From Branchiostoma floridae (lineage: Eukaryota > Chordata > Leptocardii > Amphioxiformes > Branchiostomatidae), in NCBI RefSeq assembly GCF_000003815.2, contig NC_049983.1, positions 27,587,088-27,651,087 of the forward strand: a stretch of 64,000 nt of DNA, written 5' to 3'. The translations under genes were made by a program, and so were the position numbers. Each line of letters starts with the position of its first letter. Within the stretch, counting starts at the first letter, position 1. The notes under the pieces were generated by a model. That model was not told where the DNA came from. It saw only the letters and a program-made list of their open reading frames with translations, and ran no database searches. Positions 1,477 to 60,352 of the stretch are shown piece by piece.

Positions 1477-1564
1477 ACGATCCCCAAAAACCTAAATGCG
1501 CGACAATATATATGTGTGCACATCAATATCTAATCATTTTCCTTCTGTCCACCGAACAAAAAGT

Positions 1565-3768: not shown

Positions 3769-3906
3769 AGACCTGGGCGTCGCCGGTGTTCGGGAACCAA
3801 GTCTGGGGCTTTGTGATATAATAACTGACGAAAGACGTCTGTTGTTTGTGCTTTCAGCGCATCCATAAAGACTGATCTCAGCAGATGTTACCGGTTGATT
3901 GACTTA

Positions 3907-25513: not shown

Positions 25514-25895
25514 CAAATATTGAATGGAACAGCAGGCGAGATTAGCCTCGACAACATTTTCAATACGGTCCAAATAAAGTTGCGTAAAAACCATAAAGCT
25601 TGTTATACACTGAATCTAATGCGCACAGTTAGACAGTTACGTCTCCATTGGGATGTAAATCGATCGACAAAAAAGTGTATACATGTCTCCTGTCTCATTC
25701 AAAGGAGAATGCATTTAGAAAACAAGTTGATTTAGTTTATAATGGTGGAAATCTACATTTAATTTTTATTTCAGCACACACACAATAACACTTTTCACTT
25801 GTTTTGCACAAAGGCTTAAAACGTCAAACACAAAGGATTGTAAGAACCAAATTGCAGCTAAGACAAAAACCTTCTGACAGCCTGACAGATATTTC

Positions 25896-28244
25896 TCAAG
25901 GGCAGTAAGGTGTGCACTGCCATCCTGTGCCCGTATAGTCATGGCGCCGGGTGCAGTCATAATAGGATGGTTCCTGAAATGGGTTACTAAGGCGTTGACA
26001 ATTGTAGGTGTAGATGCACCTGTTGGTCTTCAATTGGCAATTGTACCTCCAAAGCCACGGCTCACAGTTTACGATGAGCCGAGCAGTTTTGTTCCCTAAT
26101 CAGAGAAAAAAACGGCAATGTTGAGCATATCTGCCGTCAGGATGACTGAAATTGAATGGTTAAATCAGAGGACTTTTAAGGGCCACACCCTGAGTTTATT
26201 TCGGGTTGCTTTACACCCTCAAGTCTAGCGACAGCCTTAGCCAGCAAATTATATTGTAGCTGAATGACTGTATATAGGCTGAGAGGATATTCTTTCAGCT
26301 GAGTCATGATCATTCAACTTATCTAATTTTGAAAAATTACAGGAAAAATCGTTATTTTCATGTGAAAAGTAATGCACAAAATCGGACGTTTCGCATTTGA
26401 TAAAACCCATTGAAAAGATTGTCAGGCATACCTGACTGTTGTTGTCAGAAAGAGGAAAACGCTGCGAGTGATCGAGCCAAGAAAATTCTACTACCACAAT
26501 TTTTTCATAAACATCCACGGAGTGCGGTACTGCAGCTTCGGACACAATCACACAACACCTCAGAGGTCAATCTGGGTCAAGGAATCGATTTACATTCTAG
26601 GCGTACGGATACCCTGAAATGAAGCTCAGGTCCAAACACAATTTTCACCAAAAGCACACCACTTCCTGCGCTTTAAGACATGTTCGTATTTAATGTACCT
26701 AATGAGAAATTCAAACCTAGTCGAAGAGCTAATCGAAATGTAGAAAATGATGTAAGATTTTACCTCCGTCCTGCTCGATGGATGCCCCAGGAACCACCTC
26801 CGTACTGTAGACAGGATACTTCTCGCACATCTGGGCCATCTGATCCCCCAACATGGACCGGTCCTTCACAGGCTGCGCGGCGGCGCGCTCGTAGGTCTCC
26901 TCCTTCTTCCTCTTGATGATGGTGCTCCGTGCTTGTGGATTCTATAAACATAGGCGGGGTATTTAATGTCAATATTATAAAATCAAAGCTCATGGCGTCT
27001 TTTGTGACCGTAACTTGTAGTCCTAAGTGTTCTCTCTGTACATTGACAATTAATTTTCTGAAAGTTCACTCACCGCCATCTCGCTCAACCCTTCCTCCAG
27101 CTTGTCGATAGTCAGCATATCGTCAGGCATGTGGGACAGGAAACAGACGTTCAGGTCCGGGAAGAGGGTCATCGCCAGACCCTGTAAAGTAAAATGCATG
27201 AATTTGTCAGTTACCACCGCTAGACTACATCTGTTCTTCTTTTAAACATAAGTACCATAAACATGTGGGTGTAAATCGTGTTGTACGCACCGTGTTGTAG
27301 TCCAGCATGAACTGATTGGCAGTCACGATGTTGTGCTGAGGCACGTGGAACACGACGATCTGATTCTCCCGGTCTACGTCAGTCACTTGGTTGAAAATCG
27401 TTCCTTCCTCGTTGATTTGGACAGTGTACTGATGCTAAAAAGGAGAATTCGGATCATGAATCAGCAGCAACAAATGCACGAGTAGGTACATGTAATGGTT
27501 TCTCTCTGGAAATGTAATTCCTACCATGACGTTATCTTAACCTGTCTGTATATGTGCCTGTAAAGCCGGTATAGCCGCCTTTGGTGTATCACACCAGCTT
27601 CTGTATCTGTATCTATATAGCCGGTATAACCGCCCTTCGGCGTAACACACCAGCTTCTGTATCTGTATCTGTATCTGTATGGTTGGTATAACCGCCCTTC
27701 GGCGTAACACACCAGCTTCTGTATCTATATCTGTATGGTTGGTATAAATGCATTTCATACCAATGTCAAATCTGATCAAAGTATATTCAACGTCATTTCA
27801 CTCCCTGTAGAATATCCTCTTGTACTTTTACCATTTGCCGTTTACAACATTAATCATTTTCAGATTGAAACATTAGATTCAACGGGGACAGATATACCTA
27901 CATTGCAGGACAGGCTCACTTGTGAAACCAAAGAAAAGCTGACATTTAAGCTGCACACTAATTTGTTGAAGATTTAAAATGTTATCTTCCCTACCTGGGT
28001 GGAGGGGGCCTTTTCCTCACACGTACAGGGGCATGTACAGGAGGGTGCCGCGTGGACGGTAGACAAAACCGCCAAGATGGAGAAGAGCAGAAATCCAGCC
28101 TGGGGAACATGAACAAATGTTACATGTTACATAAAATGAAATAAACTACACCCTAGTTTTTTATGTTACATAAAATAAAATAAACTACACCCTAACTTGA
28201 AGAGGCAGCGCTATCAGCATAAGAGAGTCTTGATGGCTTACCAT
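25896..28244 (-). CDS. Secreted BRICHOS-domain protein with 7-Cys tail, gene 1
   Basis: Exons 28244-28242, 28099-27995, 27434-27291, 27181-27074, 26941-26764 and 26095-25896 join at GT-AG sites into 245 residues. The first exon codes only for Met. Residues 1-18 are a signal peptide; CTCPCTC follows. The BRICHOS domain covers about 37-165: LDYNTGLA across the exon 3/4 junction matches the family's DYxTG, and C97 and C159 are the canonical pair. Exon 5 adds a basic KRKK insert. The last exon encodes a Cys-rich domain (C-x8-C-x6-C-x5-C-x14-C-x12-C-x3-C) ending TPYCP. BRICHOS acts as an intramolecular chaperone for a C-terminal client in gastrokine, surfactant protein C and arenicin precursors, so the tail is the probable effector. 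Gastric-type or antimicrobial function is inference. A TATA box lies upstream. Confidence 0.88.
27540..27745. repeat. 56-bp minisatellite in BRICHOS intron 2 (unit 1)
   Basis: About three units with ATAACCGCCCTTCGGCGTAA, ACCAGCTTCTGTATCTG and GTATGGTTGGT. Unit 2 has about five (34,095-34,390), unit 3 about one and a half (44,850-44,935). Repetitive minus-strand frames here are not genes. Confidence 0.9.
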
Positions 28245-28342
28245 GACGAACCAGTGGACAGTCGGTCTCTTCGGTCGAAGATTCAGTCACAACAGCTTTT
28301 GCGTGGATGGTTGGGGTATGTCACCAATCGAGCGGTGCACCC

Positions 28343-28350
28343 AATTTATA
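28343..28350 (-). promoter_or_regulatory. TATA box of BRICHOS gene 1
   Basis: CTATAAATTGGG on the minus strand about 100 bases before the ATG, conserved in the other two genes (34988-34995 and 45518-45525). Confidence 0.6.
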
Positions 28351-29389
28351 GAGGTTTGAAACAATGAACCTGTCAATCAACCAATCAATCAAGTTGTTTG
28401 TTACACAAAAATTCTTGGAAGCAACACTTCCTTGACTTTTGTGTAAATTCTGCAAAGCGCTGACTCATGAGAACAGAACATAAGTTGCTGACTTGTTATT
28501 TGCAATATGTATTGGAACGTGTCAATGTGGCTTGAGAACTCTAAGCTGTACCATTCATATATGTCATATAGTCATAGTAGTCTTACGTTGTCTTATCCTT
28601 GTTTCCTTTGGACTACTGAAAATATATCTTCCTAACTTTTTTGCAAATTGATTATGGAGGATAAACCTGTTTTCCAACTAGATCTCTTTTGCAAATCAAT
28701 TCACAGCTAGGATGTAAAAACCTCTCTCCAACAAGATCTCTTCAGTGTCACTGACGAAAGACACCGGATGTTGTTTGAACATTCTGGCTATTTCTTGTTG
28801 ACTCGTTAGCAAACCATGTTTGGAACAGCAACAGGGGTTATTAAGAGTAGCTGTCATTGTCATAAACATATTGAAATTCCTTAATGTACTTAAATTGTTC
28901 CGACAGGTAATCATGCACATCGAGATACTATTCTATAGTTTTGTCTGGAATCTTTCCAATGTGCGTGTGCTGACTGACAAGGGCGATTACATGCTCATGA
29001 GTCATGACCGAACTGTAAGTTATGCCGCGAGTTGTTTTTTTCGGAGCCTTGTCCTTTGACAAAGGTCCTACACTTGTTTGTCACAGAGTACGTTTCCTTG
29101 TTAGATAATATTTTTGTTCCATGGCAGCAAACACACGCAGAGCCCGACTTAGAACCAGTTCCAAGAAATCCACTCCATCGCCATGTCCAACCGGGCGGTC
29201 CTTGCCCGGTCAACCGCCCTGACATTTAAGCCTTTCGATTTCTTTGTCGTCAGAATTTGTAGACATTATCTTCATACCTCCACGATATATCTTTTTGTGA
29301 ATATCTTGTTTTATCTTGTTTCATTGATTATATGAATTTGGCTGTAATCAATAATTTTTCTAAAAGATGGTCTTCTCTTTCTTGTAACT

Positions 29390-30110
29390 CTGGTATTTGA
29401 ATGCAAGACTGTTTCTTGTATCAGTATCAGTCGGTACGTCCACCAGCTTATTGGTCATTTTGTACATCATGCAAAGTCTGGACATTTTCCTTCTGTCTTC
29501 AAGTGACATCCACTGCAAATCTGTTTTCATTTTGGTAACAGTGGCATCCCTGCTTGGGTCTGCACCCTTGCCAGTTTATCTTTGTCTTTCTTTGTATACG
29601 GGTCCCATACTGTTGCATACTGTTGCATCATATTCAAGATTAGGTCTTACCCCGGCTGGGCATGCCCACAAGTTACGTTTGATCACCCCCAATGTCTGTT
29701 TAGCCTTGTTTGTTATTTTGTTAACATAGAAACCCCACTTCAGCCTAGTTGTTAACGTGACACCTAGGTATGGGTGTGTTTTTGTGGTTGCTAATGTCTG
29801 ACCACAGAGCTGGTAATGGGGCACATTTGGTGTTCGTTTGTTCGTAATGTGCATGATATAGCACTTGTCAGGATTGAAGTGCATAAGCCATTTATTTCCT
29901 TTGTCATTCTTCCAGCGTGTTCAGGTCTTTCTGAAGGACTTGTGAATCACTCTTTGTGGATACCTCTATATATAACAGGCAATCATCGGCGAATAACCGT
30001 ATGTCTAGACGACAATGTTCCTTGGTATCTGTTACACTGTTGCTATTTAGAAGCGAGCTGACAAAGGCAGAACTACAAACTACCTGAAAACCTTTTATTT
30101 CCAAACCACG
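29390..30110 (-). pseudogene. LINE reverse transcriptase fragment A, unit 1
   Basis: Minus-strand pieces read IRLFADDCLLYIEVSTKSDS (catalytic FADD), MHFNPDKCYIMHITNK, HPYLGVTLT, RPNLEYDATVCN and KTDLQWMSLEDRRKMSRLCM: the palm-to-C-terminal part of a CR1/L2-like non-LTR element. Frames are broken and the 5' end is missing. It is paralogous to 37,446-38,268 in unit 2. Confidence 0.85.
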
Positions 30111-31099
30111 TGCCCTAATATAAACCTTCCTTCAACATGAATGAAACGTTAATAATGCTTTTATTGTGCTCAGAGACCTTTCCTCGTCTTCAAAGGTAGC
30201 AACATTTATTTTTCACAGAGTCTAAGGTTTCCTTGTTAGATAAGATTGTCGTTCCATGGTAGCAAACACACGCAGAACCCGACGTAGAACCAGTTCCTGG
30301 AAAATTACTCTATCGTCTTGTCCAACCGGGCTGACCTTGACCGGTCAGCTGCCCTGACAGAAACGCTTTTGAGTCTTTTTTTTGCGAAGGCAGAGGACGG
30401 CCATTTTGCAGGCTGATTTCCACAAAAAGGACAATTGGAAGAACTATAGTTCACCGATTCGATTAAATCATCAATATTTAGCGCTATAGCTTTATAGATA
30501 TTGTAGACATTGTATCAAATCTAAAGCATGGAAAGATATTGCACAGACACATAAATCAATTTTAATTGCTATACTTCAGCTGAGTCTACTTAGATGAACA
30601 AGACAAAATACATGTGCCTCCTGTAAATAAAGATTTGTTGTTTCTTTCGATAACCGTGTTCTATGTTTCAACTCAGAATACCAACTTTGTAGTCCCGTGC
30701 TTTAGCAGAATTTTTCCCTTGTATTTTTTTGCCATCCGCATTAGTTTTGGGGCTCTAATCAGTTGTGGAGTCTGGTGGAGGCTAAGTATTTCATACTGAC
30801 CTCATGCGGAACTTGACTATGTGCCTCTAAATAGCTAGACTTAAAATATATGAGACAGTGAGATAGTGAGATGGTTCAGTTAGTGAACAATAAAACACAT
30901 CGCAGCTACTTCTACACAGTAGAAGAGGCTGAATTGCGCATTTTAGACATTGTACTTCATACATGTGTAGCATCTATGAATTAATATACAATTACAAGAA
31001 GTCGTATTATAGAAATAAAGCAAAAGGAAACAAAACAAATTGTTATACAAAGTATAAATGAAGACTGTGACGGTGGATTAAGAGACATGGGAGATCTTT

Positions 31100-31965
31100 T
31101 CAGGTACATGTATTTAAAAGGTGGGTGAAGTATAGGATGGGGCTGTTTTTGTAGCGGTTTGTTTTGGTCGATGGAATGCAAAGTTTGTTCGCACATTTTT
31201 GGTCTCTACCATGGACTTCCGAACGTGTTGGAGGTAGCCAGCTTCTAAATATAGGGGAACTAATAATAAGAGATTTGGAAAACTTAAGGCTAAGGTTTTT
31301 CCTCCTGTTTTCTAAGGAGGGGAGACAAAAATGGGCTAGGGCTTCATCATAACATGTATAATGGAGGCCAAGGATAATTCTTAGGGCACGTTTTTGTACT
31401 CGCTCGATCTTCATGGATTGCAGCGCCGTGATACTCGGGCTCCAAACTGGAGCAGCGTACTCTAAAGTAGGCCGTATGTAACCTTGATAGAATTCAATGA
31501 GATCTTGTGTGGAAAGTCCAAATCGTCTTAATTTTTTTCAGCCAAAAAAGGCGTGAACTTGCCTTTTGTGTGATGATGTCAACATGTTTGCTCCAACTAA
31601 GATCTTTGGCGAACCATAGGCCAAGTATACATGCGTCTTCCGTGTATTCAAGGGGCGTATCGTTAAGTGAGATTGTCGGAGGAGGGGGGCAGTCTTTCAT
31701 AAACGAAATCATTAGTAGTTTAAATTTTTCACCGTTTAGGATCATGTCGTTTTTTGACGCACAGCCATTTAATTCATTCAGGGATGTTTGTACTTGGCTG
31801 GGTTCATAGAACATTCTACTTTCACATATTGATAAGTCGTCGACAAATTTATAACGGTCTAAAACGTCTTCTCTGAGGGCGTCGTTAATATAAATTAAGA
31901 AGAGGATAGGACCTAATTTTGTGCCTTGGGGGACGCCAGACGAAATTTCTCTCCAATATGATGGA
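31100..31965 (-). pseudogene. LINE reverse transcriptase fragment B, unit 1
   Basis: Starts at a microsatellite and reads SSGVPQGTKLGPILFLIYIN, YKFVDDLSICE (catalytic FVDD), SKNDMILNGEKFKLL, LEYAAPVWSP and RALRIILGLHYTCYDEAL. Several frameshifts separate it from the more open copy at 41,856-42,705. Confidence 0.85.
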
Positions 31966-32012
31966 TAGATAGATAGATGGAGAGAGAGAGAGAGAGGTAG
32001 AGAGATAGAGAA
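31960..32012. repeat. GATA/GAGA microsatellite
   Basis: (GATA)n then (GAGA)n at the 5' truncation point of LINE fragment B; the same junction is at 42,705-42,752 in unit 2. Confidence 0.9.
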
Positions 32013-32426
32013 AACACGTTTTTAAACTAAAACGTTGTAGTCAAAACAAATCTTTGTAGTAACGAACAATATGCAGTAAGTGCTTTGACAAACTTTATTC
32101 AAATGTTGAATGGAACCACAGGTGAGATTGACCTCGACAATGTAAAATGAAGTTGTGCGCAAATCAAACCGAATCTAATTCACACAGTAGGACAGCTACC
32201 TTGTGTAAACATATCTCATTTTGTCTCATTCAAATGAGAAAGCATTTAGAAAACAAGTTGAGTTTAGTTTATCAATGGAAATCTACATTAACACACACGC
32301 AATGACACGTTTTACGTGTTTTGCACAAAGGCTTAAAACGTCAAACACAAAGGATTGTAAGAACCAATTTGCCAGCTAAGACAAAAATTTTCTGACAGCC
32401 TGCCAGATATTTTTATCTTAAATTTC

Positions 32427-34889
32427 TCAAGGGCAATAAGGGGTGCACTCCCAGCCAATGCCTGTGAAGTCATGGCGCCGGGTGCAGTCATAATAGGTTG
32501 GTTGCTGAAATGGGTTACCATTGTTGTTACAGTTGTAGACGTAGACGCAGGTGTTGGTCTCACGTTCACATCTGTACATCCATGTCGTTGGTGGACAAGA
32601 CAGGGTCAGAGTACGAGCAGTTTTGTTCCCTAAGCAGTGAAAAAATTGACAATGTTTAGCATATCTGCCGTCAGGATGGCTGAAATTGAATGGTTAAATC
32701 AGAGGACTTTTAAGGGTCACACCCTGAGTTTATTTCGGGTTGCTTTACACCCTCAAGTCTAGCGACAGCCTTAGCCAGCAAATTATATTGTAGCTGAATG
32801 ACTGTATATAGGCTGAGAGGATATTCTTTCAGCTGAGTCATGATCATTTAACTTCTCTAATTTTGAAAAAGTACGGGAAAAATCGTTATTTTCATGTGAA
32901 AAGTAAGGCACAATCGGACGTTGATGATAAAACCCAATTAAAAGATTTTCAGGCATACCTGACTGTTGTTGTCAGGAAGAGGAAAACGTTGCGAGTGATC
33001 AAGCCAATTATAAAGGTAATTCTAGTACTAATGTTTTTTTTTTAAATCATCCATGACGCGGCGTATTGCAACTTCGGAAACAATCACACAACACCTCAGA
33101 GGTCAATCTGGGTCAAGGAATCAATTTACATTCTAGGCGTACGGATACCCCGAAATGAAGCTCAGGTCCAAACACAATTTTCACCAAAAGCGCACCACTT
33201 CCTGCGCTTTAAGACATGTTCGTATTTAATGTCATTTTGCAGTAACTAATGAGAAATTCAAACCTAGTCGAAGAGCTAATCGAGATGTAGAAAATGGTGT
33301 AAGATTTTACCTCCGTCCTGCTCGATGGATGCCTCAGGAACCACCTCCGTAGTGTAGACAGGATACTTCATGCACATCTGGGCCATCTGGTCCCCCAGCA
33401 TGGAGCGGTCCTTCACAGGCTGCGCGGCGGCGCGCTGGTAGGTCTCCTCCTTCTTCTTCTTGATGATGGTGCTCCGTGCTTGTGGATTCTATAAACATAG
33501 GCGGGGTATTTAATGTCAATATTATAAAATCAAAGCTCATGGCGTCTTTTGTGACCGTAACTTGTAGTCCTAAGTGTTCTCTCTGTACATTGACAATTAA
33601 TTTTCTGAAAGTTCACTCACCGCCATCTCGCTCAACCCTTCCTCCAGCTTGTCGATAGTCAGCATATCGTCAGGCATGTGGGACAGGAAACAGACGTTCA
33701 GGTCCGGGAAGAGGGTCATCGCCAGACCCTGTAAAGTAAAATGCATGAATTTCTCAGTTACCACCGCTAGACTACATCTGTTAAACAGAAGTACCATAAA
33801 CATGTGGGTGTAAATCGTGTTGTACGCACCGTGTTGTAGTCCAGCATGAACTGATTGGCAGTCACGATGTTGTGCTGTGGCACGTGGAACACGACGATCT
33901 GATTCTCCCGGTCTACGTCAGTCACTTGGTTGAAAATCGTTCCCTCCTCGTTGATTTGGACAGTGTACTGATGCTAAAAAGGAGAATTCGGATCATGAAT
34001 CAGCAGCAACAAATGCACGAGTAGGTACATGTAATGGCTTCTCTCTGCAAATGTAATTCCTACCATGACGTTATCTTAACCTGTCTGTATATGTGCCTGT
34101 AAAGCCGGTATAGCCGCCTTTGGTGTATCACACCAGCTTCTGTATCTGTTTCTATACAGCCGGTATAACCGCCCTTCGGCGTAACACACCAGCTTCTGTA
34201 TCTGTATCTGTATGGTTGGTATAACCGCCCTTCGGCGTAACACACCAGCTTCTGTATCTATATCTGTATGGTTGGTATAACCGCCCTTCGGTGTAACACA
34301 CCAGCTTCTGTATCTGTATCTGTATGGTTGGTATAACCGCCCTTCGGCGTAACACACCAGCTTCTGTATCTGTATCTGTATGGTTGGCATAACTGCATTT
34401 CATACCAATGTCAAATCTGATCAAAGTATATTCAACGTCATTTCACTCCCTGTAGAATATCCTCTTGTACTTTTACCATTTGCCATTTACAACATTAATC
34501 ATTTTCAGATTGAAACAGTAGATTCAATGGGGATAGATATACCTACATTGCAGGACAGGCTCACTTGTGAAACCAAAGAAAAGCTGACATTTAAGCTGCA
34601 CACTAATTTGTTGAAGATTTAAAATGTTATCTTCCCTACCTGGGTGGAGGGGGCCTTTTCCTCACACGTACAGGGGCACGTACAGGAGGGTGCCGCGTGG
34701 ACGGTAGACAAAACCGCCAAGATGGAGAAGAGCAGAAATCCAGCCTGGGGAACATGAACAAATGTTACATGTTACATAAAATGAAATAAACTACACCCTA
34801 GTTTTTTATGTTACATAAAATAAAATAAACTACACCCTAACTTGAAGAGGCAGCGCTATCAGCATAAGAGAGTCTTGATGGCTTACCAT
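32427..34889 (-). CDS. Secreted BRICHOS-domain protein with 7-Cys tail, gene 2
   Basis: Exons 34889-34887, 34744-34640, 33973-33830, 33728-33621, 33488-33311 and 32629-32427 give 246 residues, with the architecture of gene 1: signal peptide, CTCPCTC, BRICHOS with DYNTG and two cysteines, KKK insert, Cys-rich tail. Exons 2-5 differ from gene 1 by only a handful of residues. In the first half of the tail most residues between cysteines differ (TLTLSCPPTTWMYRCERE against LIVNCEPWLWRYNCQLK), while all seven cysteines keep their spacing. The last residues (DCTRRHD, CTPYCP) are shared. There is one extra residue before the first tail cysteine. The client-domain role is inferred from other BRICHOS precursors. 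Confidence 0.88.
34095..34390. repeat. 56-bp minisatellite in BRICHOS intron 2 (unit 2)
   Basis: About five units, more than in units 1 and 3; internally very regular, so recently expanded. Confidence 0.9.
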
Positions 34890-36229
34890 GACGAACCAGT
34901 GGACAGTCGGTCTCTTCGGTCGAAGATTCAGTCACAACAGCTTTTGCGTGGATGGTTGGGGTATGTCACCAACCGAGCGGTGCACCCAATTTATAGAGGT
35001 TTGAAACAATGAACCTGTCAATCAACCAATCAATCAAGTTGTTTGTTACACAAAAATTCTTGGAAGCAACACTTCCTTGACTTTTGTGTAAATTCTGCAA
35101 AGCGCTGACTCATGAGAACAGAACATAAGTTGCTGACTTGTTATTTCCAATATGTATTGGAACGTGTCAATGTGGCTTGAGAACTCTAAGCTGTACCATT
35201 CATATATGTCATATAGTCATAGTAGTCTTACGTTGTCTTATCCTTGTTTCCTTTGGACTACTGAAAATATATCTTCCTAACCTTTTTGCAAATTGATTAT
35301 CTAGGATAAACCTGTTTTCCAACTAGATCTCTTTTGCAAATCAATTCACAGCTAGGATGTAAAAACCTCTCTCCAACAAGATCTCTTCAGTGTCACTGAC
35401 GAAAGACACCGGATGTTGTTTGAACATTCTGGCTATTTCTTGCTGACTCGTTAGCAAACCATGTTTGGAACAGCAACAGGGGTTATTAAGAGTAGCTGTC
35501 ATTGTCATAAACATATTGAAATTCCTTAATGTACTTAAATTGTTCCGACAGGTAATCATGCACATCGAGATACTATTCTATAGTTTTGTCTGGAATCTTT
35601 CCAATGTGCGTGTGCTGACTGACAAGGGCGATTACATGCTCATGAGTCATGACCGAACTGTAAGTTATGCCGCGAGTTTTTTTTCGGAGCCTTTGTCCTT
35701 TGACAAAGGTCCTACACTTGTTTGTCACAGAGTACGTTTCCTTGTTAGATAAGATTGTTATTCCATGGCAGCAAACACACGCAGAGCCCGACTTAGAACC
35801 AGTTCCAAGAAAAACCACTTTATCGTCATGTCCAACCGGGCGGTCCTTGCCCGGTCAACCGCCCTGACATTGAAGCCTTTTGATTTCTTTGTCGTCTGAC
35901 TTTGCAGACCTTATCTCCATACCTCCATGATATATTCAAAGTTTTTGTGAATATCTTGTTTTATCTTTTTTCATTGATTATATGAATTTTGCTGTAATAA
36001 TAATAATAATCATCTGGTGTATTTTGCCAGCCAGTAGGTACCCAAAGTATGAGTAATGAGGCTGTTTAACGTGGTCGAGGCTCCAAAAGATGGTCTTCTC
36101 TTTTGACATGGAATAAGTTGTATGTGTGCGTGAAATTCTGTTTCCTTTGGCAGAACTACATTTCTTAACTAGAGTACCACGGCCGCATACCTTCGCCAAA
36201 TGATTCTACACTTTACAACTGCTATAATG

Positions 36230-36660
36230 TATTAATTTTGTTTGTCATTAATATGCAAATAAGGTTGTCATTGGAGTAAATTATATTACTTGATCATCTC
36301 CTCCACCAAACAACAGACATACACAATCTATGTTAAAATGATTTTTATCGCATTTTCTGCTAATTTATGCAAATGAGGTCATCATTTGCATAATTTATGT
36401 TCAACGATGCTCACCTATACATAACTTCCAAATGCCACAAGTAAAAGTTCCCGTCATTTGCCACAATGACGTTATAGCATTCCCTCAATAATTACGCAAA
36501 TTAGGTCTGTATTTTGCATGACATATCTATAAATATTCTTCTCTTTCTCAGTTACAAATGTCACATGTTGCAATGGTCATATGATAGATCTGAGCGTGTT
36601 TAAACGATTTCCTGATTAATTATGCATATAAGATTCCTATTTGCATAATTATGAAGTTAG
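36230..36660. repeat. ATGCAAAT-bearing imperfect tandem repeat
   Basis: Four imperfect units of about 120 bp, each with a TTATGCAAATNAGGTC-like stretch (36,250, 36,366, 36,490, 36,622) and often TTTGCATAAT nearby. A related segment is at about 48,400-48,610. No coding potential. Confidence 0.65.
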
Positions 36661-36792
36661 GGTTGTAGATCCGCTCGTAGATGACCTCCCTGACTCCGCG
36701 ATCATACCACCATGGTTCACGGTCAAGGATGCCTGTCATATCGATGAAGGTTAGACATCTACTGGCAGGTAAAAAGATACGTAAAAAAACAA

Positions 36793-36922
36793 TTACTCAA
36801 GCAACTGGATATGGTTTTGGAAACGATCAGACGTTTCAGATAACATCTGTTGTTTCTTGTCAGTGTCAATGTTATCTAAAACGTCTGACCGTTTCCACAA
36901 CCATATCCAGTTGCTTGAGTAA
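36793..36922. repeat. Foldback, 53-bp arms
   Basis: 36793-36845 (TTACTCAAGCAACTGGATAT and on) is reverse-complementary to 36870-36922 with few mismatches; the loop is 24 bases. GAAGGTTAGACATC lies just upstream, as it does before the foldback at 15,974, so both may derive from one LINE family. Confidence 0.88.
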
Positions 36923-37445
36923 CTGCTTTTTGGCGTAAGGATGTCTGTTGTCTCCAGTCTAAAGGAACGTTCTTGGTGTGGTAGAGGACGAGTATCCACA
37001 TGTTCAACCGGCGTTTCTAGTTAGATGTAAACTTGTATTGAATTGTTTCTGCCAGTTCATTCTAGTGACGCTGAAGAAGAGTGATTGATGTCACTCGTAA
37101 CGTCCGGAAGTAAATCGTTTTTTATCCAGTTGTAGAGATTGGATTGTATTTGGATATCGTTTACCTGGATGTGTAACATTCATAAACGTAAACGTACTAA
37201 AGTACTCGTTCCAAAATAGTTTCACCAACGACTATTTTTGTTTACTATTTGTGTGTATAAAATATAAATCGTCAGAGATTATTTGTAGATATCGGGTGTA
37301 CTTTGACCTCCCATATCTGTAACTGTATCTATATAGCCGGCATAACCGTCCTACGGCATAAAACACTAGATTCACAGGCACGCGGCGCGGCAGCAGCTGG
37401 TTACTTGTATAATACACTGAACGACCCGTCACACTCAACTTTTGT

Positions 37446-38268
37446 ATGTCTATCTGCAAGCGTTCTTTAAACCTCACCAGAGAAGATGTCCCTTATAGTT
37501 CTGGGAAAGTACGAATTTTTGAACACATCGATCCTAGGCTGGTAACTCTGGTATTTGAATGCAAGACTGTTTCTTGTATCAGTATCAGTCGGTACGTCCA
37601 CCAGCTTATTGGTCATTTTGTACATCATGCAAAGTCTGGACATTTTCCTTCTGTCTTCAAGTGACATCCACTGCAAATCTGTTTTCATTTTGGTAACAGT
37701 GGCATCCCTGCTTGGGTCTGTACCCTTGCCAGTAAGAGTTTATATTTGTCTTTCTTTGTATACGGGTCCCACACTGTTGCATACTGTTGCATCATATTCA
37801 AGATTAGGTCTTACCCTGGCTGGGCATGCCCACAAGTTGCGTTGAATCACCCCCAATGTCTGTTTATCCTTGTTTGTTATTTTGTTAACATAGAAACCCC
37901 ACTTCAGCCCAGTTGTTAACGTGACACCTAGGTATGGGTGGCTTTTTGTGGTTGCTAATGTCTGACCACAGAACTGGTAATGGGACACATTTGGTGTTCG
38001 TTTGTTCGTAATGTGCATGATATAGCACTTGTCAGGATTGAAGTGCATAAGCCATTTATTTCCTTTGCCATTCTTCCAGCGTGTTCAGGTCTTTCTGAAG
38101 GACTTGTGAATCACTCTTTGTGGATACCTCTATATATAACAGGCAATCATCGGCGAATAACCGTATGTCTAGACGACAATGTTCCTTGGTATCTGTTAGA
38201 CTGTTGCTATTTAGAAGAGAGCTGACAAAGGCAGAACTACAAACTACCTGAAAACCTTTTATTTCCAA
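37446..38268 (-). pseudogene. LINE reverse transcriptase fragment A, unit 2
   Basis: Paralogue of 29,390-30,110. It keeps more of the C-terminus: KNSYFPRTIRDIFSGEV, typical of the end of CR1/L2-type ORF2. RLFADDCLLYIEVS is near the 5' end. Frames are broken. Confidence 0.85.
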
Positions 38269-38883
38269 CCCACGTGCCCTAATATAAACCTTCCTTCAAC
38301 ATGAATGAAACGTTAATAATGCTTTTATTGTGCTCAGAGACCTTGCCCGTCTACAAAAGTAGCAACATTTATTTTTCACAGAGTCTAAGGTTTCCTTGTT
38401 AGATAAGATTGTTGTTCCATGGTAGCAAACACACGCAGAACCCGACGTAGAACCAGTTCCTGGAAAATTACTCTATCGTCTTGTCCAACCGGGCTGACCT
38501 TGACCGGTCAGCTGCCCTGACAGAAACGCTTTTGAGTCCTTTTTTTGCGAAGGCAGAGGACGGTCATTTTGCAGGCTGATTTCCACAAAAAGGACAATTG
38601 GAAGAACTATAGTTCACCGATTCGATTAAATTATAAATATTTAGCGCAATAGCTTTATAGATATTGTAGACATTGTATCAAATCTAAACCATGGAAAGAG
38701 ATTGCTCAGACACATAAATCAATTTTAATTGCTATATTTCAGCTGAGTCTACTTAGATGAACAAGACAACATACATGTGCCTCCTGCAAATAAAGATTTG
38801 TTGTTTCTTTCGATAACCGTGTTCTATGTTTCAACTCATAATACCAACTTTGTAGTCCCGTGCTTTAGCAGAATTTTTTCCTT

Positions 38884-38891
38884 GTATTTTT
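38884..38891. repeat. 8-bp target site duplication, left (GTATTTTT)
   Basis: GTATTTTT precedes the TIR element and recurs at 41476-41483. Unit 1 has a single copy at 30721-30728 in the same context, which is the unoccupied site. Confidence 0.88.
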
Positions 38892-39009
38892 GAGCTATGT
38901 CCAGTATCAGGGTGAAGTGCACGAAGTTAGGGTGTACGAAGTTGTACGAAGTTGTACTAAGTTACAACCGTTTCCCACTGGCTTTGATGCTATATCGGGA
39001 GTCACAGAT

Positions 39010-39540
39010 GACGTCAAAACATTTATTGGATGACGTCATCTAACTTTGGACAGTGGGCAGGGTAGGTCAACAAGTGTACGAAGTTGTCCTAAGTTGTGCA
39101 AAGTTACGTGACGTCATCTAACTTCGGACAGTGGGTAGGGTAGGTCAACAAGTGTGCGAAGTTGTCCTAAGTTGTGCAAAGTTACGTGACGTCATCTAAC
39201 TTCGGACAGTGTGCAGGGTAGGTCAACAAGTGTGCGAAGTTGTCCTAAGTTGTGCAAAGTTACGTGACGTCATCTAACTTCGGACAGTGGGTAGGGTAGG
39301 TCAACAAGTGTGCGAAGTTGTCCTAAGTTGTGCAAAGTTACGTGACGTCATCTAACTTCGGACAGTGGGTAGGGTAGGTCAACAAGTGTGCGAAGTTGTC
39401 CTAAGTTGTGCAAAGTTACGTGACGTCATCTAACTTTGGACAGTGGGCAGGGTAGGTCAACAAGTGTGCGAAGTTGTCCTAAGTTGTGCAAAGTTACGTG
39501 ACGTCATCTAACTCTGGACAGTGGGCAGGGTAGGGCGGCA
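39010..39540. repeat. 78-bp satellite with CRE-like TGACGTCA
   Basis: About six and a half units, each with GTGACGTCATCTAACTTCGG, CAGTGGG, GGTCAACAAGTGTGCGAAGT and TGTCCTAAGTTGTGCAAAG. The period between successive ACGTGACGTCA copies is 78 bases (39106, 39184, 39262). Every unit carries the exact 8-bp CREB/ATF palindrome. Confidence 0.93.
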
Positions 39541-40037
39541 TGTGTACGAATTTGTCCAAAGTTAATACATAGTAAAAACTTATATATGTGTAAATAAGAT
39601 ACACACCACTCACGCATATAAACAAATAAAATATAGATGCACATTAATCAGCACAAAATCAATGTTCATGCATTGTAAAAAATTTCATTTATTTCACTTT
39701 TTTTGTCTTTTATTTCTCCTCTTAACGTTCGTTTTAACAATGCACACAAAATAATTTACGTTCACTCTTAATATTATATTTCCCTTTTTTTACGTCACTT
39801 CTAAATACAAGTACCTGAAAACATCTCCCCTATCTATTTATAAACTACATGTATTGCAGTCATCTTTCACTACTTTGTATCATAAGAAGTAGTAGTTGTT
39901 ATTTTATTCCTTGTAATTTAACAATTAATTGAAGTACTTCCACCATTTAGTACATAAGTAAACCCAGCAGACGGACTACCACTGTCCGTATGGTCTTTCC
40001 GCAACTTCGTGTAAACATCAGTCACAAGTTCTTGAAT

Positions 40038-40809
40038 CTATTTGCAGATAGTAGATTTCCCAGCACCTGCCAAGACAACAGGTAAATGTCATTTTGATCC
40101 CCGCTAATAGATGTTTAAAAAGAATAGAACAAATGAAATAAAAGCAGCCGTGGCGCAATACAGAGATTGAAAAACGACACCATTCTACGAACGCATTCCA
40201 GGTTCGAATTAAAAAAAAACACCTGAGCAAATGACGTAAATGTCTGTTGGTGACGTTAAGCAAAAGAATGTTCGACAAGGTATGGTTCTAGAAATGACGG
40301 TTGTAAATTTTGAACATATAACGTTATATCTACATTTAATCAAACGTTTGATTTGAAACAATAAAAAAGGTGTTTATAAGTAAATCTACCTGTTGGCAGG
40401 CAGATGGCTGTCCACATGTACAGAAGAACATTTTCCCTCCATTTGGTGTCAGGTGGAGAGACTTGTGCATGGCTTACAGCAAAAGCCGCGACCGTGATAA
40501 GGCTATATAAAACAGCCACCATTGGCACGCACAAAACAGATGCAACAGCACAACATCCCTGTGAAGAATAAGACAAATCTTAATAAAGATAAGTAATCTG
40601 CATTCTGATAAAAAATATGTTGTTTTGTAAGATGTAACTTCTAAAGAATAGAAGATTTATGAATCAAAAGTCAGAACTCAAAACATATCAAGGTGCGATT
40701 AATACGACTAACCCACCTGAACAAGTTCTTCCGGAAAATCCTTCCAATCAAACTCGACTTTCCAGGACGAATGGAGATTTGTAGCCTTCAAAGAGTTACT
40801 GCACGACAT
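40038..40809 (-). CDS. Possible three-exon 96-residue gene inside the TIR element
   Basis: Exons 40809-40717, 40558-40390 and 40066-40038 join at consensus GT-AG sites with matching phases (0 then 1). Exon 1 begins MSCSNSLKATNLHSSW. Exon 2 holds a hydrophobic stretch of about 25 residues (CCAVASVLCVPMVAVLYS and on), likely a membrane helix, then WRENVLLYMWTAICLPT. Exon 3 completes GAGKSTICK and a stop. The junction creates a P-loop-like PTGAGKST, but it ends at once and lacks any ATPase domain, so this may be chance. No family recognised. It could be a captured host gene fragment or a mis-prediction. Confidence 0.4.
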
Positions 40810-41198
40810 GATATGATATAATTTGTCCGTAAATCCCCCGTTAAGAAAGTCTATTTCGTCAAAGACACAGACTAAAAAGTAGCCGTGGCGACTTCAGCGC
40901 CACACGGTTTCAAACTGTTAGACTGAAAAACGACACCATTCGAAGAACGCATTCCGGATTCGAATTACGAAAACACTTGAGTTAGTGACGTAAACGTCAG
41001 ATTGTGACGTCTAAGAAGATGAGAACATTAGAAGAAAGGTTCTAGAAATGACAGTTGAGACATTTGAACGTAACACAGAAAACGTGTAGACGCGTAGTGT
41101 AGTATATGTATCGCCAAAGTCATGCTAGGCGACATCTTCCTAGGAATACGCGACCTGATCAGTACACCCGGCTGACTGTCCAAAGTTTAGATGACGTC

Positions 41199-41420
41199 AT
41201 GGTTAGCGTGACGTCATAACTTCGGACAAGTTCGTACAACTCCGTACATCACCCGGCTGACTGTCCAAAGTTTAGATGACGTCATGGTTAGCGTGACGTC
41301 ATAACTTCGGACAAGTTCGTACAACTCCGTACACCACCCGGCTGACTGTCCAAAGTTTAGATGACGTCATAACTTCGGACAAGTTCGTACAACTTTGGAC
41401 AACTTTGGACAACTTCAGAC
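41199..41420. repeat. Right-end repeats of the TIR element
   Basis: Two and a half units of about 85 bp with GGCTGACTGTCCAAAGTTTA, GATGACGTCATGG and GTGACGTCATAACTTCGGAC, in inverted sense to the left array. Confidence 0.9.
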
Positions 41421-41475
41421 ATCTAACTTAACTTAGGACAACTTCGTGCATTTCACCTGATACTGGACATGGGTG

Positions 41476-41483
41476 GTATTTTT
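41476..41483. repeat. 8-bp target site duplication, right (GTATTTTT)
   Basis: Exact partner of 38884-38891; the following TTGCCATCCGCATTAG continues the unit 1 sequence. Confidence 0.88.
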
Positions 41484-41855
41484 TTGCCATCCGCATTAGT
41501 TTTGGGGCTCTAATTAGTTGTGGAGTCTGGTGGAGGCTAAGTATTTCATACTGACCTCATGCGGAACTTGACTATGTGCCTCTATATAGCTAGACATATA
41601 TAAATATATGAGACAGTGAGATAGTGAGATGGTTCAGTCAGTGAACAATAAAATACATCGCAGCTACTTCTACACAGTAGAAGAGGCTGAATTGCGCATT
41701 TTAGACATTGTACTTCATACATGTGTAGAATCTATGAAAATATACAATTACAAGAAGTCTTATTATAGGAATAAAGCAAAAGGAAACAAAACAAATTGTT
41801 ATACAAAGTATAAATGAAGACTGTGACGGTGGATTGAGAGACTTGGGAGATCTTT

Positions 41856-42705
41856 TCAGGTACATGTATTTAAAAGGTGGGTGAAGTATGGGATGGGGCT
41901 GTTTTTGTAGCGGTTTGTTTTGGTCGATGGAATGCTAAGTTTGTTTGCACTTTTTAGGTCTCTACCATGAACTTCGGAACGTGTTGGGGGTAGCCAGCTT
42001 CTAAATATAGGGGAACTAATCAGAGATTTGGCAAACTTAAGGCTAAGGTTTTTCCTCCTGTTTTCTAAGGAGGGGAGACATAAATGGGTTAGGGCTTCGT
42101 CATAACATGTATAATGGAGGCCAAGGATAATTCTTAGGGCACGTTTTTGTACTCGCTCGATCTTCATGAATTGCAGCGCCGTGATACTCGGGCTCCAAAC
42201 TGGAGCAGCGTACTCTAAAGTAGGCCGTATGTAACTCTGATAGAATTCGATGAGATCTTGTGTGGGGAGTCCAAATCGTTTTAATTTTTTCAGCCAAAAA
42301 AGGCGTGAACTTGCCTTTTGTGTGATGATGTCAACATGTTTGCTCCAACTAAGATCTTTGGAGAACCATAGGCCAAGTATACATGCGTCTTCCGTGTATT
42401 CAAGGGGCGTATCGTTAAGTGAGATTGTCGGAGGAGGGGGGCAGTCTTTCATAAACGAAATCATTAGTAGTTTAAATTTTTCACCGTTTAGGATCATGTC
42501 GTTTTTTGACGCCCAGCCATTTAATTCATTCAGGGATGTTTGTACTTGGCTGGGATCATAGAACATTTTATTTTCACATATTGATAAGTCGTCGACAAAT
42601 TCATAACGGTCTTCTCTGAGGGCGTCGTTAATATAAATTAAGAAGAGGATAGGACCTAATTTTGTGCCTTGGGGGACGCCAGACGAAATTTCTCTCCAAT
42701 ATGAT
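41856..42705 (-). pseudogene. LINE reverse transcriptase fragment B, unit 2
   Basis: A 236-residue frame plus an open upstream extension: GVPQGTKLGPILFLIYIN, FVDDLSICE, NDMILNGEKFKLLM, RPTLEYAAPVWSP, KRALRIILGLHYTCYDEAL. Relative to unit 1 it lacks 9 bases near 42,610, which keeps the frame. The 5' truncation at the GATA/GAGA microsatellite means it cannot encode a full ORF2. Confidence 0.88.
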
Positions 42706-42824
42706 GGATAGATAGATAGATGGAGAGAGAGAGAGATAGATAGAGAGAGAGAACACGTTTTTAAACTAAAACCTTGTAGTCAAAACAAATCCTTGTAGTA
42801 ACGAGCGATATGCAGTAAGTGCTT

Positions 42825-45800
42825 TGACAAACTTTATTCAAATGTTGAATGGAACCACAGGCGAGATTGACCTCGACAATGTAAAATGAAGTTGTGCACA
42901 AATCAAACCGAATCTAATTCACACAGTAGGACAGCTACCTTGTGTAAACATATCTCATTTTGTCTCATTCAAATGAGAAAGCATTTAGAAAACAAGTTGA
43001 GTTTAGTTTATCAATGGAAATCTACATTAGCACACACGCAATGACACGTTTTACGTGTTTTGCACAAAGGCTTAAAACGTCAAACACAAAGGATTGTAAG
43101 AACCAATTTGCCAGCTAAGACAAAAATTTTCTGACAGCCTGCCAGATATTTTTATCTTAAATTTCTCAAGGGCAATAAGGGGTGCACTCCCAGCCAATGC
43201 CTGTGAAGTCATGGCGCCGGGTGCAGTCATAATAGGTTGGTTGCTGAAATGGGTTACCATTGTTGTTACAGTTGTAGACGTAGACGCAGGTGTTGGTCTC
43301 ACGTTCACATCTGTACATCCATGTCGTTGGTGGACAAGACAGGGTCAGAGTGCGAGCAGTTTTGTTCCCTAAGCAGTGAAAAAATTGACAATGTTTAGCA
43401 TATCTGCCGTCAGGATGGCTGAAATTGAATGGTTAAATCAGAGGACTTTTAAGGGTCACACCCTGAGTTTATTTCGGGTTGCTTTACACCCTCAAGTCTA
43501 GCGACAGCCTTAGCCAGCAAAGTATATTGTAGCTGAATGACTGTATATAGGCTGAGAGGATATTCCTTCAGCTGAGTCATGATCATTCAACTTCTCTAAT
43601 TTTGAAAGATTACAGGAAAAATCGTTATTTCCATGTGAAAAGTAATGCACAAAATCGGGCGTTTCGCATTTGATAAAACCCATTGAAAAGATTTTTCAGG
43701 CATACCTGACTGTTGTTGTCAGAAAGAGGAAAACGTTGCGAGTGATCGAGCCAATTATAAAGGTAATTCTAGTACTAATTTTATCTTTTTAAATCATCCA
43801 TGACGCGGCGTATTGCAACTTCGGACACAATCACACAACACCTCAGAGGTCAATCTGGGTCAAGGAATCGATTTACATTCTAGGCGTACGGATACCCCGA
43901 AATGAAGCTCAGGTCCAAACACAATTTTCACCAAAAGCGCACCACTTCCTACGCTTTAAGACATGTTCGTATTTAATGTCATTTTGCAGTAACTAATGAG
44001 AAATTCAAACCTAGTCGAAGAGCTAATCGAGATGTAGAAAATGGTGTAAGATTTTACCTCCGTCCTGCTCGATGGATGCCTCAGGAACCACCTCCGTAGT
44101 GTAGACAGGATACTTCATGCACATCTGGGCCATCTGGTCCCCCAGCATGGAGCGGTCCTTCACAGGCTGCGCGGCGGCGCGCTGGTAGGTCTCCTCCTTC
44201 TTCTTCTTGATGATGGTGCTCCGTGCTTGTGGATTCTATAAACATAGGCGGGGTATTTAATGTCAATATTATAAAATCAAAGCTCATGGCGTCTTTTGTG
44301 ACCGTAAATTGTAGTCCTTGTTCTCTCTGTACATTGACAATTAATTTTCCGAAAGTTACTCACCGCCATCTCGCTCAACCCTTCCTCCAGCTTGTCGATA
44401 GTCAGCATATCGTCAGGCATGTGGGACAGGAAACAGACGTTCAGGTCCGGGAAGAGGGTCATCGCCAGACCCTGTAAAGTAAAATGCATTAATTTCTCAG
44501 TCAGTTATCACCGCTAGACTATATCTGTTCTTCTTTTAAACAGAAGTACCATAAACATGTGGGTGTAAATCGTGTTGTACGCACCGTGTTGTAGTCCAGC
44601 ATGAACTGATTGGCAGTCACGATGTTGTGCTGAGGCACGTGGAACACGACGATCTGATTCTCTCGGTCTACGTCAGTCACTTGGTTGAAAATCGTTCCTT
44701 CCTCGTTGATTTGGACAGTGTACTGATGCTAAAAAGGAGAATTCGGATCATGAATCAGCAGCAACAAATGCACGAGTAGGTACATGTAATGGTTTCTCTC
44801 TGCAAATGTAATTCCTACCATGACGTTATCTTAACCTGTCTGTATCTGTGCCTGTAAAGCCGGTATAGCCGCCTTTGGTGTATCACACCAGCTTCTGTAT
44901 CTGTATCTGTATGGTTGGTATAACTGCCCTTTATACCAATGTCAAATCTGATCAAAGTATATTCAACGTCATTTCAATCCCTGTAGAATATCCTCTTGTT
45001 GTACTTTTACCATTTGCCATTTACAACATTAATCATTTTCAGATTGAAACATTAGATTCAACGGGGACAGATATAAATGCATTGCAGGACAGGCTCACTT
45101 GTGAAACCAAAGAAAAGCTGACATTTAAGCTGCACACTAATTTGCTGAAGATTTAAAATGTTATCTTCCCTACCTGGGTGGAGGGGGCCTTTTCCTCACA
45201 CGTACAGGGGCACGTACAGGAGGGTGCCGCGTGGACGGTAGACAAAACCGCCAAGATGGAGAAGAGCAGAAATCCAGCCTGGGGAACATGAACAAATGTT
45301 ACATGTTGCATAAAATAAAATAAACTACACCCTAGTTTTTTATGTTACATAAAATAAAATAAACTACACCCTAACTTGAAGAGGCAGCGCTATCAGCATA
45401 AGAGAGTCTTGATGGCTTACCATGACAAACCAGTGAACAGTCGGTCTCTTCGGTCGAAGATTCAGTCACAACAGCTTTTGGATGGTTGGGGTATGTCAGC
45501 AATCGAGCGGTGCACCCAATTTATAGAGGTTTGAAACAATGAACCTGTCAATCAACCAATCAATCAAGTTGTTTGTTACACAAAAATTCTTGGAAGCAAC
45601 ACTCCATTGACTCTTGGGTAAATTCGGCAAAGCGCTGACTCATGAGAACAGAACATAAGTTGCTGACTTGTTATTTGCAATATGTATTGGAACGTGTCAA
45701 TGTGGCTCGAGAACTCTAAGCTGTACCATTCATATATGTCATATAGTCATAGTAGTCTTACGTTGTCTTATCCTTGTTTCCTTTGGACTCCTAACATTTG

Positions 45801-58800: not shown

Positions 58801-59336
58801 GAAAAGTATACGTCTATAGTATAACGTTAGGTCCATTCCGCACAAACGAAATAAGTTCAGTTCAGTTCATCCATTTGGTGAAATCATGAGATCCCACTAG
58901 GAAACAAGATGCCCCCTATTAAGATAGCCTAACAATATCTGTGATCTGTTTAGGGTAGACGTGATTGAAGCACGTAGGTAGTAAAGATCAACAAAAGCTG
59001 GCCTTGTGTCCAGCCATTGCGAGACAGGTGTTGACAGACCATCTAATATGGAGGAATGACGTACGACAGCGAGAGGCTTGAAGAGTAACCGACGCGTTTT
59101 CTGGACGATAAACATGGGTTCGACAGCAAATACGTGACCGGTGACAAAACGTTTGTCCCAACTCTGCCTAGCAAGGCGCCAGCCTGCGTACCTGAACGAG
59201 TTCCGCCTGGCGGAGCCGTCAACTTTAACTACCACCTGCTCCTGAGGCGATCCCGCCCGGGGCTGCCCTGGCACAACCACAGACCTGGAATGGCATCATG
59301 GTAGACGCCAAACGCTTATTAATTCTATTTAATTAA

Positions 59337-60200
59337 AGTGCTCCAATACTGGTCGGATGGTACCCAGAGTGTCAGGAGCCCCAGTACCGGTCGGATGGTA
59401 CCCAGAGTGTAAGGAGCCCCAGTAAAGGTCGGATGGTACCCAGAGTGTAAGGAGCCCCAGTACTGGTCGGATGGTACCCAGAGTGTAAGGAACCCCAGTA
59501 CTGGTCGGATGGTACCCAGAGTGTCAGGAGCCCCAGTACTGGTCGGATGGTACCCAGAGTGTAAGGAGCCCCAGTACTGGTCGGATGGTACCCAGAGTGT
59601 AAGGAGCCCCAGTACTGGTCGGATGGTACCCAGAGTGTCAGGAGCCCCAGTACTGGTCGGATGGTACCCAGAGTGTAAGGAGCCCCAGTACTGGTCGGAT
59701 GGTACCCAGAGTGTCAGGAGCCCCAGTACCGGTCGGATGGTACCCAGAGTGTCAGGAACCCCAGTACCGGTCGGATGGTACCCAGAGTGTAAGGAGCCTC
59801 AGTACTGGTTTGATGGTACCCAGAGTGTCAGGAGCCCCAGTACTGGTCGGATGGTACCCAGAGTGTAAGGAACCCCAGTACTGGTCGGATGGTACCCAGA
59901 GTGTCAGGAGCCCCAGTACTGGTCGGATGGTACCCAGAGTGTAAGGAGCCTCAGTACTGGTCGGATGGTACCCAGAGTGTAAGGAGCCCCAGTACTGGTT
60001 TGATGGTACCCAGAGTGTAAGGAGCCCCAGTACCGGTCGGATGGTACCCAGAGTGTAAGGAGCCTCAGTACCGGTCGGATGGTATCCAGAGTGTAAGGAG
60101 CCCCAGTACTGGTCGGATGGTACCCAGAGTGTAAGGAGCCCCAGCACTGGTCGGATGGTACCCAGAGTGTAAGGAGCCCCAGTACTGGTTGGATGGTACC
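59337..60200. repeat. 38-bp minisatellite, about 22 copies
   Basis: Unit: ACTGGTCGGATGGTACCCAG followed by AGTGTMAGGAGCCCCAGT. Variants alternate (GTCAGG/GTAAGG, ACTGG/ACCGG, GTCGG/GTTTG). The long frames in it on both strands arise only because the repeat lacks stops. Confidence 0.97.
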
Positions 60201-60252
60201 CAGGCTACCTTATGGCTGCCTTGGCCGAGCTGGGCTCAAAAGTAGGCTCTAA

Positions 60253-60352
60253 NNNNNNNNNNNNNNNNNNNNNNNNNNNNNNNNNNNNNNNNNNNNNNNN
60301 NNNNNNNNNNNNNNNNNNNNNNNNNNNNNNNNNNNNNNNNNNNNNNNNNNNN
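60253..60352. other. Assembly gap (100 N)
   Basis: A run of N between the minisatellite and a coding exon; it truncates the gene at 60,353-62,235. Confidence 1.

What the first reader, a model, noticed from the sequence alone, without database searches (positions are those of the whole stretch)
25896..45423. Tandem BRICHOS genes with a conserved chaperone part and a diversified seven-cysteine tail
Three paralogues share almost identical signal, BRICHOS and intron sequence. In the last exon, gene 1 differs from genes 2/3 at most positions between the first four cysteines, yet the spacing C-8-C-6-C-5-C-14-C-12-C-3-C is unchanged. Known: BRICHOS precursors chaperone a C-terminal client, which in arenicins is an antimicrobial peptide. 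Inferred: the tail is a secreted effector, possibly defensive or mucosal, under diversifying selection while the rest is homogenised.
Basis: partly seen in the sequence, partly recalled or inferred. Interest (0 to 1): 0.78.

Follow-up and report, generated by a model that had tools for sequence, protein, structure and literature searches.

The report
BRICHOS gene trio with seven-cysteine tails
Three neighbouring animal genes make chaperone-plus-tail proteins whose tail looked fast-evolving, but the tail is an old conserved domain and most of the odd pattern is best explained by copying between the genes that evened out nearly everything except the tail.

Summary
Three minus-strand genes (signal exon, exons 3-5 with linker and BRICHOS, tail exon) have identical exon 2-4 protein and g1-g2 introns 92-100% alike (gaps left out), while gene 1's tail is 65% identical to that of genes 2/3 with identical cysteine spacing.

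Diversifying selection is not supported. The window's own genome holds at least six more genes with this tail (three in tandem on C15, one each on C14, C4, C11); all nine found keep the seven cysteines. Over eight of them the tail's dN/dS is 0.33, with no significant positive class; g1-g2 alone gives 0.37. Power is low. [quoted passage not shown] gene 2 is a mosaic. Gene 1's tail is sister to that of genes 2/3. A well-matched island after exon 6 is not explained by one tract. Tails are not strongly cationic (net -5 to +2), which speaks against an arenicin-like peptide. Tail function is inferred; structure prediction never ran.

The parts
25896..26095 (-). gene 1 exon 6: seven-cysteine tail and stop
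   Evidence: in frame with exon 5 at phase 1; own-genome search
26764..26941 (-). gene 1 exon 5: second half of BRICHOS (second conserved Cys)
27074..27181 (-). gene 1 exon 4: BRICHOS (first conserved Cys)
27291..27434 (-). gene 1 exon 3: linker and first residues of BRICHOS
27995..28099 (-). gene 1 exon 2: signal peptide and CxCxCxC stretch
   Evidence: signal read by eye
28242..28244 (-). gene 1 initiator ATG at end of exon 1
32427..32629 (-). gene 2 exon 6: seven-cysteine tail and stop
33311..33488 (-). gene 2 exon 5
33621..33728 (-). gene 2 exon 4
33830..33973 (-). gene 2 exon 3
34640..34744 (-). gene 2 exon 2
34887..34889 (-). gene 2 initiator ATG at end of exon 1
43166..43368 (-). gene 3 exon 6: seven-cysteine tail, same protein as gene 2
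44058..44235 (-). gene 3 exon 5
44364..44471 (-). gene 3 exon 4
44585..44728 (-). gene 3 exon 3
45174..45278 (-). gene 3 exon 2
45421..45423 (-). gene 3 initiator ATG at end of exon 1
25905..26080 (-). block where gene 1 departs from genes 2/3, between better matched flanks (exon 6 halves 67.0% and 82.5%)
25800..25895 (-). 3' flank island, 92 of 96 aligned bases identical g1-g2 (14 gap columns), before the 81% distal flank

Best explanation
The three genes are members of an old family of BRICHOS precursors with a signal peptide. The BRICHOS part is the intramolecular chaperone; the tail is a disulphide-rich, aromatic-rich domain of about 60 residues that it helps to fold, perhaps cut free after a (K/R)xxR site. 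[quoted passage not shown] Inside the tail the cysteine frame is held by purifying selection while about half the sites are nearly free. Shown: gene structure, family, conserved cysteines, omega below 1, mosaic pattern. Inferred: chaperone role, folding of the tail, cleavage, secretion, and the mechanism of homogenisation.
For: g1-g2 dS is 0.038 in exons 2-4, 0.078 in exon 5 and about 0.5 in exon 6 (rounded synonymous changes 16 of 47 against 6 of 122, p=3e-6), so exon 6 is older at silent sites too. Distal 3' noncoding is also old (81% identity, and lower still beyond). Informative sites: 5' flank to intron 1 g1=g2 60 of 72, exon 6 g2=g3 50 of 50, 3' side g2=g3 83 of 90, with a mixed stretch between, so gene 2 is a mosaic. 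Omega of the tail 0.33 over eight genes; g1-g2 0.37. Over the whole exon, nonsynonymous change (34 of 151) does not exceed the distal flank (43 of 228, p=0.43). Seven cysteines invariant in 8 of 8 distinct tails aligned. Gene 1 is sister to genes 2/3 in exon 6 and in exons 3-5. The C15 triplet shows no isolated exon 6 block: exon 6 is 74-86% against introns at 58-91%.
Against: The old block is bracketed on both sides: just after the stop 4 of 96 aligned bases differ (p=4e-4 against the distal flank), so one tract end does not explain it; two tracts, constraint or selection are needed. In the 5' half of exon 6 both nonsynonymous (25 of 62) and synonymous (10 of 19) changes exceed the distal 3' flank (43 of 228; p=7e-4 and 2e-3), so that half is more diverged than its neighbourhood predicts. 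Codon counts are small and the 5' half is near saturation (t=2.7). No formal recombination test was run; no structure, expression or cleavage data.
Confidence: 0.62

Rival explanations
1. Selection keeps two different tails apart: conversion between the genes is frequent, but tracts that overwrite exon 6 are removed because both tail types are needed, so the tail persists as a protected cassette.
For: Low-divergence sequence on both sides of exon 6 (intron 5b 94.5%, proximal 3' flank 95.8%) with 67.0% and 82.5% in between; the 3' island is unlikely by chance. Gene 1 shares the front with genes 2/3 at dS 0.025-0.038 in exons 2-4.
Against: The C15 triplet does not repeat the bracketed pattern. 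Genes 2 and 3 have the same tail protein, so tails are not always kept apart. A divergent patch also lies in intron 5 (72%, about 26494-26551).
Confidence: 0.2
2. The tail is a defensive effector under positive diversifying selection.
For: Tail evolves faster than exons 3-5 (omega 0.33 against 0.17; half of tail sites in the neutral class against 15%); 11 of 19 inter-cysteine positions differ between g1 and g2 (by eye); nonsynonymous change in the 5' half exceeds the distal flank.
Against: Omega below 1 overall and for g1-g2; M2a equals M1a, M7/M8 p=0.15. Silent sites are raised as well. Power is low: eight sequences, about 70 codons.
Confidence: 0.1
3. Gene 1 received its exon 6 from another locus by exon shuffling or ectopic conversion.
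For: Nearly exon-sized divergent block.
Against: Nearest tail found in the genome is that of genes 2/3 (65%); next is C14 at 51%. g1 is sister to g2/g3 in exon 6 trees, support 0.83 (DNA) and 0.87 (protein).
Confidence: 0.05
4. The genes are arenicin-type precursors whose tail is a membrane-active antimicrobial peptide.
For: Signal peptide (by eye), acidic exon 3-5 part (net -11), C-terminal cysteine-rich part; RVRR directly before the tail in the C14, C4 and C11 genes.
Against: Tails net -5 to +2; genes 1-3 lack a dibasic site there, having KTAR; tail conserved across old paralogues.
Confidence: 0.08

Closest known systems
BRICHOS superfamily (Hedlund et al. 2009, PMC2751770, passages read)
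   Same: Hydrophobic start, linker, BRICHOS, C-terminal region; conserved D and two C. D-to-C spacing is 16 here as in D144-C160 of ITM2A; C-to-C is 62 here against 59 there. The paper mentions a divergent group with echinoderm and amphioxus sequences.
   Different: The seven-cysteine tail had no Pfam match and only chance-level PDB sequence matches. Whether it belongs to that divergent group was not tested.
Gastrokines (GKN1, GKN2)
   Same: Hydrophobic start that is, or may be, a signal peptide instead of a membrane anchor (PMC2751770 passages; read by eye here).
   Different: No sequence or tree comparison with gastrokines was made; that their tails lack seven cysteines is recalled.
Annelid BRICHOS antimicrobial precursors (arenicins, nicomicins PMC6265681, HfBRI peptides PMC10745061; passages read)
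   Same: Signal or membrane start, BRICHOS proregion (acidic in nicomicins), C-terminal part of 18-91 residues, many with disulphides.
   Different: Those tails are enriched in positive charge and follow a dibasic site; these tails are near neutral or acidic and the window genes have KTAR.
Preproalvinellacin family of Alvinella (Papot et al. 2017, PMC5431198; abstract and sections 18 and 23 read)
   Same: Tandem paralogues with recombination between copies.
   Different: There the peptide is invariant and BRICHOS diversifies; here the BRICHOS part is nearly invariant among genes 1-3 and the tail differs.

Membership tests
BRICHOS superfamily | BRICHOS domain by profile | tested here: met
   PF04089 43.7 bits against cut-off 25, on spliced gene 1. 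The unspliced own-genome scan with the same family found 0 matches and rang in no control genome, so it says nothing.
BRICHOS superfamily | Conserved Asp and two Cys with family spacing | tested here: met
   D-C 16, C-C 62; all three invariant in the five proteins of A3
BRICHOS superfamily | Chaperone action on own C-terminal client | not testable with these tools
   needs biochemistry
Annelid-type BRICHOS antimicrobial precursor | Dibasic (Lys/Arg-Arg) site before the tail | tested here: not met
   Genes 1-3 have NKTAR then L or T; C14, C4, C11 carry RVRR and h3 carries RR further from cysteine 1
Annelid-type BRICHOS antimicrobial precursor | Cationic mature tail | tested here: not met
   net +2 (g1), -1 (g2/g3); nine genes -5 to +2
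Annelid-type BRICHOS antimicrobial precursor | Antimicrobial activity | not testable with these tools
   none
Gastrokine family | Signal peptide, no membrane anchor | tested here: inconclusive
   hydrophobic exon 2 read by eye; no predictor run
Gastrokine family | Groups with gastrokines in a BRICHOS tree | not tested
   no gastrokine sequences compared
Positively selected effector | dN/dS above 1 overall or at a class of sites | tested here: not met
   low power, own code

The most novel reading that the evidence does not exclude
Exon 6 is a selectively protected cassette: recurrent gene conversion homogenises promoter, signal, chaperone and even the proximal 3' flank of tandem BRICHOS genes, but tracts that would merge the two tail types are purged, so one standard chaperone is kept matched to several distinct disulphide-rich clients.
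Probability: 0.2. Interest if true: 0.6.

Novelty: new member of a known kind. Interest (0 to 1): 0.35.

Why it matters
BRICHOS proteins are studied as anti-amyloid chaperones with very different clients. One animal genome carrying at least nine genes in which one chaperone architecture is paired with one conserved seven-cysteine domain gives a natural set for asking which client residues BRICHOS needs. It also shows how patchy homogenisation can look like diversifying selection when silent sites are not counted.

Tried and rejected
Positive selection on the tail was tested with NG86 counts, site models and pairwise likelihood and rejected at present power. M8 put 2.9% of tail sites in a class with an unstable omega of 84 (p=0.15); two alignment columns, 12 and 20, had posterior 0.80 and 0.89; this is not taken as signal. 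For exons 3-5 M7/M8 gave p=0.09, and NG86 for exon 5 of h2-h3 alone gave 0.99, so the front part is not uniformly constrained. NG86 gives higher tail values (g1-g2 about 0.6) than likelihood (0.37), both below 1. Import of exon 6 from another locus was rejected. PDB sequence searches gave only chance-level matches (best E 0.082). Bootstrapped trees timed out with nothing printed and were replaced by FastTree with SH-like support. The BRICHOS-like exon at C15 about 574.69 kb (L030) had no seven-cysteine tail recognised in the 10 kb read, plus strand listed, and was left out. Candidates L038-L040 (E 0.25-2.7) were not followed. Species: 513,431,437 bases in 431 contigs suggest a lancelet, Branchiostoma floridae; that is recalled, and a paper search (listing, one passage of one paper) did not confirm it. 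Searches for BRICHOS with amphioxus and with Branchiostoma each listed five papers of an open-licence library; of these only PMC2751770 was opened (passages), so absence of this tail from print is not claimed.

Rows dropped: gene 3 was left out of the codon models (same protein as gene 2); the partial gene h0 was left out of all alignments and counts; exons 3-5 of the C14, C4 and C11 genes were only partly covered (117 codons), and their signal exons were not looked for.
Full report
WHAT IS THERE. The window is part of a 513 Mb genome (contig C5), an animal by its gene content. Between 25896 and 45423 three genes lie head to tail on the minus strand. Each has an ATG at the end of exon 1, a signal-peptide exon, three exons holding linker and BRICHOS, and a last exon with the tail; splice sites and reading frame are consistent. 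BRICHOS is confirmed by Pfam on the spliced protein (E=3.4e-11, residues 77-165). The tails alone match no Pfam family. A scan of the unspliced genome with the same Pfam family found nothing and rang in no control, so it is uninformative.

Exons 2-4 give the same protein in all three genes, exon 5 differs at five of 60 residues between gene 1 and genes 2/3, and exon 6 is 64-65% identical, with identical cysteine spacing. Genes 2 and 3 encode the same protein.

THE TAIL IS AN OLD SHARED DOMAIN. Searches of the own genome with the gene 1 tail, with exon 3 and with the C11 tail agree on nine full genes, a lower bound: the three here, three in tandem on C15 near 1.86-1.88 Mb, and one each on C14, C4 and C11. 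Each has BRICHOS exons upstream of the tail; signal exons were seen for the C5 and C15 genes only and not sought in the others. The eight distinct tails share all seven cysteines and seven other invariant positions; h2 has an eighth cysteine. A tenth, partial gene (h0) lies at C15 about 1.846 Mb, with a signal exon, a shortened six-cysteine tail and a 100-N assembly gap where BRICHOS exons would be.

SELECTION. NG86 gives g1-g2 dN/dS of about 0.6 in exon 6; likelihood gives 0.37, below 1 at p=0.009, and 0.18 for the 5' half, which is near saturation. Over eight genes the tail has omega 0.33 and exons 3-5 0.17; neither M2a nor M8 improves the fit significantly (tail M7/M8 p=0.15, exons 3-5 p=0.09). 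In M1a half of the tail sites fall in the neutral class against 15% in exons 3-5. Tail pairs h1-h2 and h2-h3 (0.63, 0.54) are not distinguishable from 1. So the tail is faster and looser, not positively selected at the power available.

HISTORY. Silent divergence between gene 1 and gene 2 is 0.038 in exons 2-4 and about 0.5 in exon 6. Noncoding identity, gaps left out, is 98-100% from the 5' flank to intron 4, 92-95% in intron 5, 96% just after the stop and 81% further on. Informative sites show gene 2 with gene 1 at the 5' side (60 of 72) and with gene 3 in exon 6 (50 of 50) and beyond (83 of 90), with a mixed stretch between. The simplest reading is an old split, overwritten in front by conversion or unequal crossing over; no formal recombination test was run. 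Exon 6 and exons 3-5 both keep gene 1 next to genes 2/3 (support 0.83 and 0.76 on DNA, 0.87 and 0.91 on protein), so no foreign donor is needed; the order within the C15 triplet differs between trees, with support of 0.44-0.84. What this reading explains least well is the well-matched island just downstream of exon 6; two tracts, constraint, or selection against conversion of the tail are needed. The 5' half of exon 6 is also more diverged, at silent and other sites, than the distal 3' flank, while over the whole exon nonsynonymous change is not. A second divergent patch inside intron 5 shows that patchiness is not confined to coding sequence. In the C15 triplet exon 6 is less diverged than most introns, intron 4 excepted, so the pattern is not repeated there.

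HOW IT PROBABLY WORKS. By analogy with other BRICHOS precursors the domain would chaperone the tail during secretion (general knowledge of the superfamily; not shown here). A (K/R)xxR sequence stands before the tail in 9 of 9 genes: RVRR in C14, C4 and C11, KTAR in g1-g3 and h1, KTPR in h2, KTTR in h3; in the C15 genes about ten residues lie between it and the first cysteine (read by eye). RVRR fits a furin site; KTAR fits only the looser convertase pattern (both recalled). Five of the nine genes have an N-K-T glycosylation sequon at this point. The tails are near neutral or acidic, with 8-11 aromatic residues, unlike the cationic annelid peptides described in PMC6265681 and PMC10745061 (passages read). 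An odd cysteine number would suit a disulphide-linked dimer; this is inference.

VERDICT. A real, moderately interesting BRICHOS subfamily. The diversifying-selection story fails its own test; patchy concerted evolution explains most of the pattern, and a protected-cassette reading remains open.

Noticed in passing
window 51716-55646 (+): Exons of a proprotein-convertase-like gene lie about 6 kb beyond gene 3: P-domain E=1.9e-19 and a subtilase match below Pfam's cut-off (E=0.0021), with motif-like stretches for the catalytic Asp, His and Asn read by eye. No normal serine-motif exon was recognised in the stretches read, so it may be degenerate or incomplete. A processing-enzyme-like gene beside possible substrates may be coincidence.
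   Followed up: partly
L010-L012 (C15 near 1861955, 1867580 and 1878027): The signal-peptide exon is identical base for base in the three C15 paralogues (92 of 92) while introns are 58-91% alike, and exons 3-4 differ at 23 of 231 bases between h1 and h2.
   Followed up: partly
L041 3785-4746 (C15 about 1.846 Mb): Partial family member h0: signal exon and shortened six-cysteine tail separated by a 100-N assembly gap; BRICHOS exons not seen.
   Followed up: partly
L030 5690-5824 (C15 about 574.69-574.82 kb): Another BRICHOS-like exon (38% identity to exon 3, E=0.11 in the genome search) with no seven-cysteine tail recognised nearby.
   Followed up: partly
window 31103-32021 and 41859-42779 (-): Reverse-transcriptase-like frames downstream of genes 2 and 3 (RVT_1 E=1.3e-8 for the second, the only one scanned); the two stretches are 94-98% alike, which fits a shared duplication.
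   Followed up: partly
window 1-2840: Perfect 1333-base inverted repeat around a 100-N gap; possibly an assembly artefact.
   Followed up: no
window 17245-19530 (+): FLYWCH and MULE transposase domains in two neighbouring open frames, likely a DNA transposon.
   Followed up: no
window 3367-3903 (-): Bcl-2 family domain, E=3.6e-12.
   Followed up: no
window 59191-60288 and 38953-39654: Tandem repeats with 38-base and 78-base periods.
   Followed up: no
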